A DNA stretch of 64,000 nucleotides from Sphingomonas xanthus. Its GTDB lineage: Bacteria; Pseudomonadota; Alphaproteobacteria; Sphingomonadales; Sphingomonadaceae. Where the stretch lies: NCBI RefSeq assembly GCF_007998985.1, contig NZ_CP041659.1, positions 1,228,501 through 1,292,500 of the forward strand, given 5' to 3'. The translations under genes and the position numbers were made by a program. This document shows, in pieces, positions 44,733 through 51,063 of this stretch. Numbering within the stretch: the stretch's first letter is position 1; every line of letters begins with the position of its first letter. Below the pieces are notes generated by a model. It had not been told where the DNA came from. It did not search any database and was given only the letters and a program-made list of their open reading frames with translations.

Positions 44733-45653
44733 ATGCTGACCTTGTTGCTGGCCGCGACCGCGGCGACGTCGACGCCGGTGACTGCGCCCGGTCCGTCCGG
44801 ACCACTCGCGGGAACCTTTATCGATGCCGGGGCGCGAAGTCCGGTCGTGCTGATCATACCCGGTTCCGGACCGACCGATCGCGACGGCAACAGCCCGTTG
44901 GGAGTGACCGCCGGAAGCTACCGCCTGTTGGCCGAAGCCCTTGCCGAGCGGGGCGTCAGCAGCGTTCGCGTCGACAAGCGCGGCATGTTCGGAAGCAAGA
45001 ACGCACTTGCCAATGCGAATCAGGTGACGATCGCCGACTATGCGGCGGATGTGCGCAGCTGGATCGGCGCGATCAGGACCAGGAGCAGCAGTTCCTGCCT
45101 ATGGATCGCCGGTCATAGTGAAGGTGGGCTGGTCGCACTGAAGGCTGCGCAGGACAGTGCCGGCATTTGCGGCGTGATCGCGCTGGCGGCCCCCGGACGG
45201 CCGGTCGGTATCGCGCTACGCGAACAGCTCAAGGCCAATCCGAATAATGCTCCGCTGCTCGACCAGGCGCTCGCCGCGGTCGATTCAATCGAAGCGGGCA
45301 AGCAGGTCGATCCGGCAAGTCTCCATCCTGCGCTTCTCCCGCTGTTCAATGAGCAGGTGCAACCCTATTTGCGCGACCTGCTTTCGCACGATCCGGCCAG
45401 GCTCGCCGCGTCGCTGGATGTGCCGCTGCTCGTGATCCACGCCGAAGCCGATCTGCAGATCGCGCGCGCCGATGCGGATGCGCTGGCGGCGGCGAAACCC
45501 GATGCGAAGTTGAGCCTGATTGCCGGGGCCAATCATGTTCTGAAGATACCCGCAGGCACCGATCGCGCCGCGAACATGGCCAGCTATGGGGACGCGTCGC
45601 TGCCGCTGGCGCCCGGGATTGCCGACGCGATCGCAGCGTTCGTGCGGCGCTAG
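44733..45653 (+). CDS. Exported alpha/beta hydrolase
   Basis: A 306-residue protein starting at ATG 44733, with a short signal-like N-terminus (MLTLLLAATAATSTPVTA). The hydrolase body has VVLIIPGSGPTDRDGNSPLG, VRVDKRGMFGSKNAL, the nucleophile elbow AGHSEGGL (Ser about 125), LLVIHAEADLQIARADADAL and the His in AGANHVLKI. The PGSGPTDRDGNSPLG segment is typical of a family of periplasmic dienelactone-hydrolase-like or peptidase-like proteins. The substrate is unknown. As the last gene of the SPFH operon it may modify an envelope component. Its stop shares CTAG with the S1/P1 nuclease. Confidence 0.85.
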   Translation: MLTLLLAATAATSTPVTAPGPSGPLAGTFIDAGARSPVVLIIPGSGPTDRDGNSPLGVTAGSYRLLAEALAERGVSSVRVDKRGMFGSKNALANANQVTIADYAADVRSWIGAIRTRSSSSCLWIAGHSEGGLVALKAAQDSAGICGVIALAAPGRPVGIALREQLKANPNNAPLLDQALAAVDSIEAGKQVDPASLHPALLPLFNEQVQPYLRDLLSHDPARLAASLDVPLLVIHAEADLQIARADADALAAAKPDAKLSLIAGANHVLKIPAGTDRAANMASYGDASLPLAPGIADAIAAFVRR

Positions 45654-46534
45654 CGTTGGCCTGGCGCCTTGCCGTGGATCAGGGCGTCGTCGATTAGCCG
45701 GGCAAGCCGTATGCCACCCGCGACGACATTGCGTTTTACTTCGGGGATGAGGACATTGACCTCAGCTTCCCCGAGGACAGGCCGTTCGGGCGGTTCGGCA
45801 CCGCAGGGGTCGGTCAGAAGCGTCTTATAGGCAAGGTCACGCGCCTTGCCCCACATCTCTCGGCTCCACTCCTCGACCGTGCCCCGGCTAACCTGGATGC
45901 GCTCGGCTTGCGGGACCTGCGCCAGCATAGCCGCCGGGCCGGCGGGCGGCGTGCTGATCGCCCGCTCGGCAAGCCAGCCGTCCCAGATTCCGTGAAGGTT
46001 GGTGCGCCCGCCGATGATTCCATAATTGGCGGCGACGCGGTTGCCGCCGAGGTCCTGGTGGTCCCCGGCATGCATCGGCTGGTGGAGATCGCCGACAAAA
46101 TGGGCAAGGAAGGCCAGGGCCATCAGCCGCTCGCGTGTGGGCACACCGCGGTCGGCGAGCAGCCGGGCGTTCCGCTCAATCTGGACGGACACGCAATTGC
46201 CGTCCTTGCAAGCCGCCTTGAGATCGAATGGCTTGCAGATGTCGACGTTCTGGTAATGCCAGCTGAATGCATAGCCGAACCGGTCGCCGAGCGGCTTGAT
46301 GCAGTCGGCCCAGAGGCTGGCTTGCTCCAATGTCGTCACCGGGCAGTCCGGCGTCTCCAGAAGCTTGCCTTGCCTCAGCAGGGAAGCGACCTGGCTGCGG
46401 CTTTGGGCGCTCATCTGCAGCCAGGCGATCCGGGCAACGCTTTCATGGCCATATTCCCAATAGGCCCCGGCGGGACGGGCAAAGCCAAGCAACGCGACCA
46501 GCGCGGCGAGCATCAGCATGAAACGATTCGGCAT
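45650..46534 (-). CDS. S1/P1 family nuclease, secreted
   Basis: A 294-residue protein with a signal peptide (MPNRFMLMLAALVALLGFAR, cleavage near PAGA). The mature protein begins YWEYGHESVARIAWL, where the family's N-terminal Trp and the His act as zinc ligands. Later ligands are in LWADCIKPLG, LAFLAHFVGDLHQPMHAGD (HxxGDxHQPLH-like) and TNLHGIWDGWL. It is a three-zinc, single-strand-specific nuclease with 3'-nucleotidase activity, acting in the periplasm or outside the cell. It follows the SLOG-membrane gene by 30 bases on the same strand, so it may be the fourth gene of that operon. It could equally have its own promoter. Confidence 0.92.
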   Translation of the reverse strand: MPNRFMLMLAALVALLGFARPAGAYWEYGHESVARIAWLQMSAQSRSQVASLLRQGKLLETPDCPVTTLEQASLWADCIKPLGDRFGYAFSWHYQNVDICKPFDLKAACKDGNCVSVQIERNARLLADRGVPTRERLMALAFLAHFVGDLHQPMHAGDHQDLGGNRVAANYGIIGGRTNLHGIWDGWLAERAISTPPAGPAAMLAQVPQAERIQVSRGTVEEWSREMWGKARDLAYKTLLTDPCGAEPPERPVLGEAEVNVLIPEVKRNVVAGGIRLARLIDDALIHGKAPGQR

Positions 46535-46564: not shown

Positions 46565-48406
46565 TTAGCCGCTGATTGTCAGGTCATGCTGTTCATGGAC
46601 CAGCCGCCATTCACTAAGGTCCGCGAACATCGCCCGCGCGGCCTGTTCGCCAAGGTCGGCTGCCCGCGGCAGTTCGATGCCGTCGGTTCGAAGTTCTCTT
46701 GCCAGCACCGCGAGCGAGGCGGCGGTTGCTTCGGAACGGAGCGCGCTTCCCCCGAAATCACCTTGGAACCGGATGCCGAAGACCGCGGTGCCGACCGCGG
46801 GCAACCCCGCGGAAATCAGGGTCAGCCAGTCCTGCCACCGTTCGAACCAGTGGGGAGCTAATGCCAGTGCAGCGATGGTCGCGGCCGAGGCAGCCAGGGT
46901 AACCCAAAAGATGCCGATGCTGACCCGCTCAAGCCGGTGATCGAGCAATTGGATCTGCTTGCTGTGCGACTGGTGATAGGCGACCTGCGGGTCAAGCTCC
47001 TGCTCGGCGATCGCCCGGGCGATTGGACCGGCCATGTCGGCCTTGGCGGTGCCTGCGGGGCACCCAACGGCCCGCCAGATCGCCGACGAATACCATTCGA
47101 TCCAGCGGCGGGCGACAGGATTGGTGACGCTGCCCGGCGGATCGGGCGCCGCGATGCCGAGGAGTTTGAGGCTGCGCAGCGGTCGCAATCGTTCCGCGAG
47201 CTGGCGATAATCAAGCCATCGCCGATGCCATTGCCGGGTCACGCCGACCCGCGTGTTAACGATGATAAGGAGGGCGAGGAGAAATTCGAAGGCGGCAAGG
47301 CCCAATTGGGCCTTGGGAAACAGGAAGCCGCTCAGTCCGACCAGCACCGCCATCGCCGCCAGGGTAAAATTGAGGACATGACCACTGCGGTAATTTTGCG
47401 CGAAATGGGTCGCCAACTGGTCGGCCCAGCCGTGGGTAGTCCCCAACAGGTCGATCGCCATGGTGAAGCCGTGCGGCTTAAGACAGGCCTCCGTGTAGCG
47501 GCGCCACTCCTGCTCGCGCAGGACCGAGGAGCGCTCCTCGCGGAAATCCTTGGCGTCGAACCGCCCGACCCCCGCGGTCGCCAGAAGAAGTGGATATTCG
47601 ATCCGAGCACGGTACCGATGCTGCCGTTCGGCGATGAAGGTCGCCAGATAATCGCGCTCCCGGCTGTCCTGCGGCGGTGCAACCAGCAAAGCCAAGAGTG
47701 CGTCGAGATTGGCAGCATTATAGGGCCGCCGGTCGACATCGCCGCTATGGACGGTGACGACCGCCGGGTCGTAGGCACTCCACAGCAGGGTGATGGGCTG
47801 GTCCGAAGCAATGGGGATATGGACCAGGGGTGTGCCGCGGCCCATTGCCAGTTCGACGATTTCGCCCGTGCCGCCGCGGCCGCGGGGAACCTCGCCGTCC
47901 CAAACGGCAATCAACAGGTCAGAATGGGCAACGGTGGCTCGCCCGGCCATCACATAGGCATCCAGCGGTCGCTGCGGGTCGCCCGGCAATTCCAGGATCC
48001 CGCCGGCTGCATCGATCAGCCGGTCGAAATCGGACCGGGAGCGGGCGTCGACTTCGGCCCGGCTCACTTCTCGGGAAAAAGGCATGATTACCTGCAGCGA
48101 AAAGCCCCGCTCAAGCCCCGCCATTGCGGCGATCTGGTCGGCCCCATCGGCGAGCGGGGACACGAGCGTCAGGCATGGGCGTTGGTCGGCAAACCAGTGT
48201 CGGTTCTCATCGCATTGCCGGTGTGCGGCCCTGCCGACCTCCTCGACGACTTGCCGTATACGGGTTTCGACCGTTGCAGCGGACGCGCCAAGCGACGCGC
48301 TGCGGTGGCCGGTTACGCCAAGACGAAAGGCAAAGGGCGGCTTTGGCGGACCGTGCGACGCAGCGTCCTGCTGATCCCCCGGCATCACGCCCACTGCCCT
48401 GTTCAC
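46565..48406 (-). CDS. SLOG-like Rossmann protein with four C-terminal membrane segments (SLATT-like)
   Basis: About 613 residues. Residues 27-200 look like a SLOG nucleotide-binding domain: RLGVTGHRSASLG, TLVSPLADGADQIAAMAGLE, HSDLLIAVWDGEVPRGRGGT and GEIVELAMGRGTPLVHIP. The second half has hydrophobic segments near 343-363, 366-384, 495-516 and 527-546. A WHRRWLDYRQLAERLRPLR stretch between the pairs recalls SLATT (SMODS/SLOG-associated two-TM effector) domains, seemingly duplicated. SLOG and SLATT are known from nucleotide-signalling conflict systems, where a ligand-binding domain triggers membrane damage. The start is GTG 48406 (TAGTG overlap). ATG 48385 is possible. Family assignment is by eye. 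Confidence 0.68.
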   Translation of the reverse strand: MNRAVGVMPGDQQDAASHGPPKPPFAFRLGVTGHRSASLGASAATVETRIRQVVEEVGRAAHRQCDENRHWFADQRPCLTLVSPLADGADQIAAMAGLERGFSLQVIMPFSREVSRAEVDARSRSDFDRLIDAAGGILELPGDPQRPLDAYVMAGRATVAHSDLLIAVWDGEVPRGRGGTGEIVELAMGRGTPLVHIPIASDQPITLLWSAYDPAVVTVHSGDVDRRPYNAANLDALLALLVAPPQDSRERDYLATFIAERQHRYRARIEYPLLLATAGVGRFDAKDFREERSSVLREQEWRRYTEACLKPHGFTMAIDLLGTTHGWADQLATHFAQNYRSGHVLNFTLAAMAVLVGLSGFLFPKAQLGLAAFEFLLALLIIVNTRVGVTRQWHRRWLDYRQLAERLRPLRSLKLLGIAAPDPPGSVTNPVARRWIEWYSSAIWRAVGCPAGTAKADMAGPIARAIAEQELDPQVAYHQSHSKQIQLLDHRLERVSIGIFWVTLAASAATIAALALAPHWFERWQDWLTLISAGLPAVGTAVFGIRFQGDFGGSALRSEATAASLAVLARELRTDGIELPRAADLGEQAARAMFADLSEWRLVHEQHDLTISG

Positions 48407-48870
48407 TAGTGGAACTGACCTCCGCCGCCGTTGCGGATCTCGGGATCATATTCGAAGCGCGACTGGCCGCCGACCTCGTCACCCGAAAACCATAAGGAAT
48501 AGTAGAGCGTGCAGGCCGAGCCGCTATTGGCGTCCACAACCTTCAACAAATTTCTGTTGCTCTCCCCGTCCTTGATCTGGCCGCCGTTGCCTGTTCCGGT
48601 GGGGCAGCCGTCGAGCGCCACCCAAATCGCGTCCTGCCAATCGTCCAGGAACTGCAAGTGCGCGCCGCTTTCATCGCGAAGCTGGAAATGGATCGGCACA
48701 TCGGCCTCTTCGGCCGGGATAATGACCTTGCCTTTTTTGTTTCCGCTATCGCCCTGCCGTTTCCATCGATGATCGAACAATATCTCGTCATCGATCCTAA
48801 AAGCGTAGATGGTGACCTGGACGGGCTTCACGCTCGACCGATCGACGATATCCGCTTCAGCTGCTTCCAT
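48406..48870 (-). CDS. Unrecognised 154-residue protein between TIR and SLOG genes
   Basis: A soluble protein beginning MEAAEADIVDRSSVKPVQVT, with an excellent GAGGAGGAAAAG before the ATG. The pattern alternates hydrophobic residues (VQVTIYAFRIDDEILFDHRW, VPIHFQLRDESGAHLQFLDD, CTLYYSLWFSGDEV), which suggests an all-beta sandwich. It ends FEYDPEIRNGGGGQFH. Two Cys could pair. It has no signal peptide, membrane segment or nuclease motif. It is locked between the TIR gene (27 bases upstream) and the SLOG gene (one-base overlap), so it is probably a sensor, adaptor or modulator of that system. I assign no family. Confidence 0.7.
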   Translation of the reverse strand: MEAAEADIVDRSSVKPVQVTIYAFRIDDEILFDHRWKRQGDSGNKKGKVIIPAEEADVPIHFQLRDESGAHLQFLDDWQDAIWVALDGCPTGTGNGGQIKDGESNRNLLKVVDANSGSACTLYYSLWFSGDEVGGQSRFEYDPEIRNGGGGQFH

Positions 48871-48897
48871 CTTTTCCTCCTCAAACTCTGCTCCTCA

Positions 48898-51063
48898 TCA
48901 CACGCGCACTGGTCGTTGAACCATTGTGTAACTGGGGTGCTGGAATCCCATCGCCGCAAGGCGCTGGACTAGGCGGTTGGCCTCCTCGGCTCGGCCCAGT
49001 TGCCGGAGCAGCAGGGCACGATTGGCGATCTCCCGCGGCTGTTCTTCGATATCGGTCGGCCATGCCGTCAGCGCGCGCTGGTTGGCGGCCCTGGCGCCGC
49101 TTGCCTGCCCGGCCATGGCCAGTGCGTGGCTCAGCAGCATTTCCGATTCCGCGATAGCCAGGCCCCGCTCGATTGGTTTTTCTTCCCCGCGCGCGATGGT
49201 AAGCGCACGGCGAGCCTGCGATTGCGCTTCGGCTGAGTTCATCAGGTGAAGCGCGATCAGCCCCTTAATCTTCGCGCACCGCAGCTGAAGGGTGGTCCGC
49301 CACATCGTCACGCTTCGGTCGCGTGCAAGCAGTGCGGTTGATGCCGCGCAGGCCGAATCCGCGGCGCTGCGCGCACCGGCGGCATTGCCTGCCGCCAGCT
49401 CCAGCGCTGCACGGTCGAAATTGGTCTGCGCCCCCGCTTGCATCCATTCGGTGTTATTGGGCTCGGTCCGCATCAGCCAGTCGACAAGCTTTGCGGCCTG
49501 CCGGGCCTGGTCGATCGATTGCGGCATTCGCCCACGGTAGGACAGCATCCGGGCCACCGCCCTGCGCGCCGTCATCTCATCACGGCGCAGCGCGGTTGAC
49601 GGCTTATCCGGATCCCAAAGTTCGGCGATCAGACCCAGTTGACGCTGCCTGAGCGCGATGCCGTCGTCGATCTGCCCGGAAAACTCCCTCGCATCGGCAA
49701 GCCAGGCCAGCGAGTTGATCAGCTTGATCTGAAACTCCGGATCGCGCGCATTTTTGACGACCAGCGCCTCGACCGGTTCCATCAGCCGCTGGAAGGTCGC
49801 GGCAGCATCGCGGTAGCGCCGCTGGTCCATGAGGACCGTACCCAGATTGGTTTCGGCGTAAATCTGCTCCAGCTGGTAATCCTGGTTGCCCGGTTCCAGT
49901 TCGACCATCCGGTCGGCGAGGACGCGATAATCGCGAAAGGCCGCCGCTGCCTTCTCTAAGTCGCCGCGAAGATAATCGATATATCCGACCCAGAAGACGT
50001 TCTGCGCATGGTTGAACAGGTTCCGCGGATTGTCGGGCTCGCGGCGCAGCGCCTCTGCCGTGCCGTTCAACGCTTCGCGATAGCGCCGTAACGCGCCATC
50101 GAGGTCGCCCCGAGCCTGCGCCATCTCACCCATCAAGGTCAGCGCCCGCGACCGTTGGGCCAGGGCAGCGTCGGACAATGATCCCTTATTCTGTCCTTCA
50201 TAATAAGCGAGCGCCCGGGCGCCGACCGAATCCATGAGATCGAGCCGCCCAAGGGGCGCAAGCTTTTCACGAAGGTCGCCGAGCATGAACCCGACCAGCT
50301 TGTCGGCTTCCTGGCTATGGAAATGGGCTTCGTCGCGCGCTTCGATCGCGGTGTAGGCAAGCCCTCCGGTAACGATCATGCCGGCGATAGAGGCGGCCGT
50401 GATGAGCGACTGGCGCCGATGCCGCCGCTGCGCATCGCGCTGGGCAAGATCGTCAAGTCCCACTCCGAGCAAGCCTGCAGCGATCTTGAGCAGGCCAAGT
50501 TTGCGGCCATCGCCGCCCTCGCGAAGGTCGGCTGCAATCGGCTCGGACCGCTGATCGGTGGGGCGCCCGCGCCGATCATAATGGGTCCGTAGCGACAGCG
50601 GAAAACATTCCTCCGCCTCATGACCGGGCATATCGCTGGCGAAGGGCTCTCCCTCGACGATCGCGGCAATGACCCGGTCTTCGCCGTTAAGGCGTTTGAA
50701 ACAGGCGATTTCCTCATCGATCCATCGCGACTGGACAGCGGCCGGCGAACAAAGGACGATCAAGAACCTCGATCCGGCGATCGCATCTTCGATCTCTTCC
50801 CCAAGGTCGCTCGACACGGCGAGTTCTTGGCGATCCCGAAAGATCGGGGTCAGCCTGCGCGGGATCGCGCCCTGGGAGGTGAGTTGGCCGACAAGGCGCG
50901 GCGGGACCTTGAACCTTTCCAGCGATTCGTGGAGCCATTCGGCGGTTGCGCTGTCGTTGTGGCTGTAGCTGAGGAACGCCATGTAGCGTTGCCGAGGCGT
51001 GGCGCGGCGGGAGCGGTGTGGGGCGCTCCTCGCAGGTCGCGACAATTGGGCAATCTCGGCCAT
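48898..51063 (-). CDS. TIR-domain protein with one membrane segment and helical (TPR-like) repeats
   Basis: A 721-residue protein. TIR domain (about 27-140): RYMAFLSYSHNDSATAEWL, RLTPIFRDRQELAVSSDLG, FLIVLCSPAAVQSRWIDEE. The W114-x-x-x-E118 pair is where catalytic Glu sits in NAD-cleaving TIRs. A membrane segment lies at about 219-240 (SLITAASIAGMIVTGGLAY). The remaining 480 residues are helical repeats resembling TPRs (for example DLDGALRRYREALNGTAEAL and RRYRDAAATFQRLMEPVEAL). This places a cytosolic TIR and a periplasmic or sensor repeat region on opposite sides of the membrane. The ATG at 51063 is preferred to the TTG at 51066. It is the first gene of the minus-strand operon. Confidence 0.82.
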   Translation of the reverse strand: MAEIAQLSRPARSAPHRSRRATPRQRYMAFLSYSHNDSATAEWLHESLERFKVPPRLVGQLTSQGAIPRRLTPIFRDRQELAVSSDLGEEIEDAIAGSRFLIVLCSPAAVQSRWIDEEIACFKRLNGEDRVIAAIVEGEPFASDMPGHEAEECFPLSLRTHYDRRGRPTDQRSEPIAADLREGGDGRKLGLLKIAAGLLGVGLDDLAQRDAQRRHRRQSLITAASIAGMIVTGGLAYTAIEARDEAHFHSQEADKLVGFMLGDLREKLAPLGRLDLMDSVGARALAYYEGQNKGSLSDAALAQRSRALTLMGEMAQARGDLDGALRRYREALNGTAEALRREPDNPRNLFNHAQNVFWVGYIDYLRGDLEKAAAAFRDYRVLADRMVELEPGNQDYQLEQIYAETNLGTVLMDQRRYRDAAATFQRLMEPVEALVVKNARDPEFQIKLINSLAWLADAREFSGQIDDGIALRQRQLGLIAELWDPDKPSTALRRDEMTARRAVARMLSYRGRMPQSIDQARQAAKLVDWLMRTEPNNTEWMQAGAQTNFDRAALELAAGNAAGARSAADSACAASTALLARDRSVTMWRTTLQLRCAKIKGLIALHLMNSAEAQSQARRALTIARGEEKPIERGLAIAESEMLLSHALAMAGQASGARAANQRALTAWPTDIEEQPREIANRALLLRQLGRAEEANRLVQRLAAMGFQHPSYTMVQRPVRV

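What the first reader, a model, noticed from the sequence alone, without database searches (positions are those of the whole stretch)
46565..51063. Three-gene TIR / unknown / SLOG-membrane operon: candidate immune or nucleotide-signalling system
On the minus strand come a TIR-membrane-repeat protein with a W-x-x-x-E active-site pattern, a 154-residue beta-type protein, and a SLOG-like nucleotide-binding domain joined to four membrane segments of SLATT character. Intergenic distances are 27 bases and a one-base overlap. TIR domains make NAD-derived signals, SLOG domains bind such nucleotides, and SLATT segments are proposed pore-forming effectors. The logical chain is sensor and signal maker (TIR), modulator, then membrane effector.
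Basis: partly seen in the sequence, partly recalled or inferred. Interest (0 to 1): 0.78.

Follow-up and report, generated by a model that had tools for sequence, protein, structure and literature searches.

The report
Three-gene bacterial alarm-and-pore operon
A bacterium carries a three-gene unit that looks like a membrane receptor able to make a small alarm molecule, a small partner protein with a possible built-in cutting site, and a membrane protein that may read the alarm; what it protects against is not known.

Summary

The operon occupies a variable slot beside an ispG-like gene. Neither phage defence, nucleotide signalling nor self-cleavage was tested, and helper residues of SO1698 are not conserved in gene 2. 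Best reading: Thoeris-like TIR-to-SLOG signalling with a membrane effector, a new variant of a known kind.

The parts
48898..51063 (-). Gene 1: TIR - probable TM - TPR protein, 721 aa (ATG at 51063)
   Evidence: TIR_2 E 2.3e-13, ThsB_TIR 1.8e-9, both over cut-off; alignment A3 of 22
50644..50991 (-). TIR domain; W114 and E118 (codons 50722-50724 and 50710-50712) are the candidate NADase active site
49294..50421 (-). TM-TPR receptor half, homologous to the C-terminal half of the large receptors in L164-L169
   Evidence: (A4)
48406..48870 (-). Gene 2: 154-aa beta-sandwich protein with SO1698 fold
48442..48447 (-). Codons of Asp142-Pro143, the conserved Asp-Pro aligned with Asp116-Pro117 of SO1698
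46565..48406 (-). Gene 3: SLOG-SLATT-like membrane protein, 613 aa (GTG start overlaps gene 2 stop by one base)
47813..48331 (-). SLOG domain of gene 3 (about residues 26-198; Gly-rich GxxGHR and GxGGT motif residues invariant in the 28 proteins of A2)
46688..47431 (-). Two SLATT-like membrane units of gene 3 (about residues 326-417, SLATT_1; and 477-573, a weak SLATT_4 match of E 0.056)
45650..46534 (-). S1/P1 nuclease gene, 30 bases downstream; judged a resident of the site, not part of the system
   Evidence: PF02265 5.7e-41; beside ispG without the operon in L196-L199 and L204
51166..52308 (+). ispG (gcpE)-like gene flanking the operon's slot (name from recall); conserved flank

Best explanation
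A Thoeris-like two-step alarm with a membrane end-point. (1) The TM-TPR half of gene 1, together with the Asp-Pro protein of gene 2, forms the sensing unit; gene 2 may be a self-cleaving or cleavage-poised ligand whose C-terminal PxIxN tail, or whose release, is read by the TPRs [inferred]. (2) When triggered, the TIR domain clusters and converts NAD+ into an ADP-ribose-type nucleotide [inferred from family knowledge and intact catalytic residues]. (3) That nucleotide binds the SLOG domain of gene 3 and makes its SLATT-like helices assemble or open, which damages or depolarises the inner membrane [inferred]. The benefit is most likely growth arrest or death of an infected or damaged cell [inferred]. 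Shown here: operon structure, folds, conserved residues, repeated TIR-SLOG pairing, and a receptor half and partner type shared with wHTH-STAND receptors. Not shown: signal, ligand, trigger, pore, cleavage.
Against: No phage, NAD or toxicity data. The window's SLATT and DUF4231 matches stay below curated cut-offs. The ThsA and TRPM2 rows have middling Z (8 to 9), which the tool itself warns about; Foldseek alone gave no match at E 0.001 or better for gene 3. 21 of 75 SLOG-SLATT loci have no TIR domain within 4 kb by my profiles. Distances of SLATT and TIR domain follow those of ispG moderately (Spearman 0.55 and 0.62), as for a long-resident system. SO1698's Asp37 and Ser114 are not conserved in gene 2, so cleavage may not occur. 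8 of 24 top TPR receptors lack the strict Asp-Pro pattern next door: G568 and G472 have an Asp-Pro without the Asn, G451 one that looks accidental, and G530, G421, G347, G362 and G101 none; and the strict match of G089 sits on an inner DPAGN, not on its last Asp-Pro. No viral-contig match.
Confidence: 0.5

Rival explanations
1. Envelope or stress signalling, not immunity. The TPR half lies in the periplasm, like the sensor half of CadC-type regulators, and reports envelope state with the Asp-Pro protein. The TIR-made nucleotide then gates the SLOG-SLATT protein as a physiological channel.
For: The same TM-TPR half with an Asp-Pro partner occurs in wHTH-nSTAND1 proteins. Arg-rich stretch before the TM segment suggests N-inside. 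One chromosomal slot kept in many genus members. Related loci carry an Ion_trans_2 protein and genes that read as a Ser/Thr kinase and a PP2C (the last two by eye, not scanned).
Against: Very fast divergence and duplication of the Asp-Pro protein and different SLOG partners look like conflict systems. Most Asp-Pro proteins lack an export signal: 2 of 30 have a lipobox-like stretch and 6 of 30 a C-terminal TM.
Confidence: 0.3
2. The TIR protein is itself the killer (NAD+ depletion). Gene 3 only senses or buffers the product, and the middle protein is an inhibitor.
For: Bacterial TIR proteins can act as NAD-depleting effectors (PMC12847820, passages read); catalytic residues intact.
Against: A SLOG-membrane gene is found near a TIR domain in 54 of 75 loci, and another partner type is a SLOG protein with a cyclase domain, which fits a messenger better than depletion.
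Confidence: 0.12
3. A gene set with no shared pathway; co-location is accidental.
For: Gene 3 and gene 1 relatives lie apart in one genome (G004: L065 and L077), and no function is known.
Against: Recurrent order in 22 loci, tight spacing, 54 of 75 TIR-SLATT pairs and 16 of 24 receptor/Asp-Pro pairs.
Confidence: 0.03

Closest known systems
Thoeris type I (TIR ThsB + SIR2-SLOG ThsA)
   Different: No SIR2 match in the partner, which is a membrane protein; TIR carries TM-TPR; an extra Asp-Pro protein lies between.
Thoeris type II (TIR + TM-macro ThsA)
   Same: TIR plus a nucleotide-binding membrane effector; membrane damage by ligand-induced oligomers (PMC11204291 and PMC12847820, passages read).
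   Different: Sensor domain is SLOG, not macro; membrane part is SLATT-like.
SLATT effectors next to TIR or cyclases (surveys by Aravind and colleagues)
   Same: SLATT predicted as nucleotide-responsive pore; TIR-SLATT neighbours described in firmicute phages (PMC9503650) and SLATT with nucleotide-related effectors in GTPase-centred systems (PMC7159879); passages read. Their 2015 source paper is recall only.
   Different: Here SLOG and SLATT are fused, and the TIR is a TM-TPR receptor with an SO1698-fold partner; that set is not in the passages I read.
SO1698 of Shewanella oneidensis (PF08985, DP-EP; formerly DUF1888 by recall)
   Different: No Pfam DP-EP match to any of 30 family members at E 0.1; Asp37 and Ser114 not kept; receptor output is TIR, not wHTH-nSTAND1.
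TPR-S / SLOG / class III cyclase proteins beside TIR (conflict systems of Aravind and colleagues, recalled)
   Same: Proteins of this type (c26) follow the same kind of TIR-TPR gene in other families; TPR-S and Guanylate_cyc found in the two scanned, L083 and L144.
   Different: Output is a nucleotide cyclase, not membrane helices.
TRPM2 channels

Membership tests
Thoeris type I | TIR protein with NADase active site | tested here: met
   TIR_2 and ThsB_TIR over cut-off; W114/E118 invariant. Activity itself not tested.
Thoeris type I | SLOG domain in the partner | tested here: met
Thoeris type I | SIR2 NADase domain in the partner | tested here: not met
   No SIR2 match at E 1 in gene 3; membrane helices instead
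Thoeris type I | Activation by 3'cADPR | not testable with these tools
   needs biochemistry
Thoeris type II | Macro domain in the membrane effector | tested here: not met
   No macro match in gene 3 at E 1
SLOG superfamily | Rossmann-like SLOG fold with the conserved Gly-rich motifs | tested here: met
SLATT / DUF4231 | Profile match over curated cut-off | tested here: inconclusive
   Window: SLATT_1 38.8 vs 41 bits, DUF4231 20.0 vs 24.7. Family members: DUF4231 in 24 of 28 at E up to 0.1, best 8.4e-8
SLATT / DUF4231 | Membrane permeabilisation on nucleotide binding | not testable with these tools
   prediction in the literature (PMC7159879, PMC9503650, passages read)
DP-EP (PF08985) | Pfam profile match | tested here: not met
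   0 of 30 members at E 0.1
DP-EP (PF08985) | SO1698 beta-sandwich fold | tested here: met
DP-EP (PF08985) | Asp-Pro at the SO1698 116-117 position | tested here: met
   D142-P143; kept in 37 of 38
DP-EP (PF08985) | Asp37 and Ser114, whose mutants appear uncleaved in the PDB set | tested here: not met
   Columns vary in the family; Asp37 also varies among the PF08985 genes. Sequence alignment only
DP-EP (PF08985) | Self-cleavage | not testable with these tools
   needs protein

The most novel reading that the evidence does not exclude
A reusable receptor cassette exists in Pseudomonadota: a membrane TPR receptor plus a self-cleaving Asp-Pro beta-sandwich protein encoded just behind it. Cleavage of the Asp-Pro bond (releasing a PxIxN tail, or freeing a membrane-anchored domain in the tail-anchored forms) is the trigger read by the TPRs. 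Evolution has plugged the cassette into different outputs: TIR feeding a SLOG-SLATT pore, TIR feeding a SLOG-cyclase, or a wHTH-STAND regulator. The window holds the TIR/SLOG-SLATT version, so a protein self-cleavage event would be the input to NAD-derived nucleotide signalling.
Probability: 0.25. Interest if true: 0.85.

Novelty: new variant of a known kind. Interest (0 to 1): 0.6.

Why it matters
TIR-to-SLOG signalling is known from Thoeris, and in the passages that I read SLATT pores are predicted from neighbourhoods. A compact operon that joins a TIR receptor to a fused SLOG-SLATT protein would let the SLATT prediction be tested with the whole pathway at hand. The receptor cassette would also give a functional context to SO1698, a solved structure for which I found no stated role in my searches, and would show one sensor feeding several outputs.

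Tried and rejected
S1/P1 nuclease as a fourth member: rejected. It follows the operon by 30 bases, but it stands next to ispG without the operon in L196-L199 and L204 (5 of the 12 sites fetched).

SLOG by sequence alone: phmmer and profile searches of solved structures gave nothing useful; the fold comparison settled it. TIR against solved structures by single sequence gave nothing at E 0.01; the profile found mainly TPR proteins and a few plant TIR domains among the best 60 of 67.

Mobile carriage: no relative of gene 3 among 18 pattern matches in viral contigs; 18 plasmid records hold partial relatives, none covering 80% of the query; 11 plasmid records hold partial relatives of gene 1.

Known defence system by profile: PADLOC gave only weak TIR matches for the four proteins scanned.

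Literature: searches (terms around SLATT, SLOG, TIR, Thoeris, TPR-S, SO1698, DUF1888, DP-EP). None of the listings shows a TM-TPR receptor with an SO1698-family partner; one search listed one paper with a single DUF1888 mention, not opened. The paper that I recall on SO1698 (Osipiuk and others, J Biol Chem 2012, self-cleaving DUF1888) is not held under the DOI I tried, so its content is recall only. Burroughs 2015 and a J Bacteriol 2020 survey with TPR-S are recall only.

How clean the cassette count is: of the 24 top receptor hits (score gap between 173 and 110 bits), 9 were used to build the profile A4 and 6 were first found through their PF08985 gene (10 in all, as 5 are both). The other 14 give 6 of 14 with the strict pattern and 9 of 14 with any Asp-Pro in the last 45 residues, one of which (G451) looks accidental (rows). 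The 1374 background frames are stop-to-stop frames over 300 residues, non-coding ones included. The middle-family set was gathered by a profile that contains the Asp-Pro, so its conservation inside the family is partly by construction.

Rows left out before counts: SLATT-type matches that I did not fetch (G193, G195, G225, G236, G248, G271, G274, G285, G310 and a second place in G155) and weak ones (G003, second place in G030). L090 repeats L050's genome but is inside the 75. The ten loci L144-L153 are 10 of about 40 SLOG-only matches, picked by me by hand.

My gene calls come from a home-made codon model; the counts use stop-to-stop frames instead. Names such as ispG, kinase and PP2C are by reading or recall; TPR-S, cyclase, FHA and ion-channel calls were scanned only in single representatives.
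Full report
WHAT IS THERE. The window comes from a 2.23-Mb genome; the names attached to its nearest protein relatives are Sphingomicrobium and Sphingomonas. On the minus strand lie three tightly packed genes: TIR (51063 to 48898), a 154-aa gene (48870 to 48406) and a SLOG-membrane gene (48406 to 46565). The gaps are 27 bases and a one-base overlap. An S1/P1 nuclease gene follows after 30 bases, and an ispG-like gene (name from recall) flanks the operon upstream on the other strand.

GENE 1. Residues 25-140 are a TIR domain: TIR_2 E 2.3e-13 and ThsB_TIR 1.8e-9, both over cut-off. In the 22 proteins of alignment A3, W114 and E118 are invariant; E118 is where NADase TIRs carry their catalytic Glu (family knowledge). 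After an Arg-rich stretch comes a weak hydrophobic segment (under my threshold in this protein) and then TPR repeats.

TIR AND SLOG GO TOGETHER. Gene 3 occurs in 29 of 61 genomes searched, all 29 in the same genus (29 of 37 there, own genome included). With a profile there are matches in 94 of 296 genomes of the order, weak SLOG-only matches counted. Of 75 loci with a SLATT anchor, fetched by SLATT match except the window itself, 54 have a TIR domain within 4 kb (L050 and L090 are the same genome). The own genome has 3 TIR_2 genes in 2.23 Mb, so by my estimate from this one genome about 1 to 2% would be expected. The TIR partners differ: TIR-TPR in the window's group; in others TIR-FHA, with genes that read as a Ser/Thr kinase and a PP2C and often an ion-channel-like protein. 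In further families the TIR-TPR gene is followed by a c26-type protein; two of that type were scanned and have TPR-S and Guanylate_cyc, and the SLOG part rests on matches to profile A2. Ten such loci picked by hand from about 40 SLOG-only matches (L144-L153) all have a TIR domain nearby (10 of 10). On a Caballeronia plasmid a DUF4231 protein is followed by a TIR protein.

A SHARED CASSETTE. I then searched for Pfam's DP-EP family (PF08985) in 398 genomes of the phylum: 6 have it. In all 6 the gene lies directly behind a 1062-1112-aa protein. The two of these that I scanned have a Trans_reg_C (wHTH) and nSTAND1 front; the other four start alike by eye. The rear half of all six aligns with the TM-TPR half of gene 1 (E 4e-44 to 1e-54). 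A profile of that half (A4) matches in 83 of 398 genomes, with 24 strong hits above a score gap. In 16 of 24 a next gene ends in DPx2-3N, against 12 of 1374 other long frames; one of the 16 (G089) matches on an inner stretch. For the 14 hits that neither built the profile nor came through PF08985 it is 6 of 14. Four receptors with other fronts (L247-L250) and two with a TIR front (L246, L251) lack the pattern. Niveispirillum shows a similar receptor followed by a protein ending in SDPEVVNDG on a plasmid.

EVOLUTION. In 17 genomes with the operon beside ispG (136 pairs), median identities are ispG 89%, TIR domain 64%, SLATT 52%, TPR half 47% and gene 2 30% (where two copies exist the better-scoring was used, which blurs the gene 2 value). 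Gene 2 distances do not follow ispG (Spearman -0.01); SLATT (0.55) and TIR domain (0.62) do so moderately. At 12 further ispG sites in the genus no operon is seen; in five of them S1/P1 lies about 130 bases from ispG (L196-L199, L204). So the operon fills a variable slot and the nuclease belongs to the site.

MECHANISM. The best-supported chain is receptor (TPR + Asp-Pro protein), TIR-made nucleotide, SLOG-SLATT membrane effector. Only the parts and their pairing are shown here. Immunity is favoured by the likeness to Thoeris, the different SLOG partners and the rapid change of gene 2. Envelope signalling is the main rival, because the same cassette also serves a wHTH protein and the locus is long-resident.

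COMPARISON. It works like Thoeris but is not type I (no SIR2) or type II (no macro domain). TIR-SLATT neighbours are in print (PMC9503650, PMC7159879; passages read). What the listings did not show is the TPR receptor/Asp-Pro cassette; most subscription papers are outside that library.

Noticed in passing
L065, L067-L071, L142 (SLOG-SLATT) and L144-L146, L148 (c26 type): A second layout: TIR-FHA protein beside the SLOG protein, with genes that read as a Ser/Thr kinase and a PP2C phosphatase, and in several an Ion_trans_2 channel-like protein. It suggests phospho-control of TIR-SLOG signalling.
   Followed up: partly
L083:7918-9756, L144:4741-6531 and similar: TPR-S / SLOG-like / guanylate-cyclase proteins near TIR genes; L083 lies behind a TIR-TPR gene in the place of gene 3.
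   Followed up: partly
L077 and L065 (same genome, G004): At the ispG slot this genome has TIR, two Asp-Pro-family genes and S1/P1 but no SLATT; its SLATT gene lies elsewhere in a TIR/kinase/PP2C cluster. In one of its Asp-Pro-family genes the Asp-Pro column reads Ala-Ile.
   Followed up: no
L205:3429-3815: Near the Niveispirillum receptor/Asp-Pro pair lies a further small ORF ending in WDPFITINP on the other strand, perhaps another partner.
   Followed up: no
L247-L250: The TPR half also occurs behind other N-terminal parts (start FISSPGDV in L248 and L250, DUF4062-like by recall; TIR-like by eye in L247 and L249) without an Asp-Pro neighbour of the strict kind.
   Followed up: no
L190 and L192 (own genome, C1:1833497-1833817 and C1:1713015-1713245): Two further TIR_2 genes in the window's genome, not examined.
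   Followed up: no
L060: Order changed to SLATT - TIR - Asp-Pro gene, with no ispG in the fetched stretch, which suggests that the trio can move or rearrange as a set.
   Followed up: no
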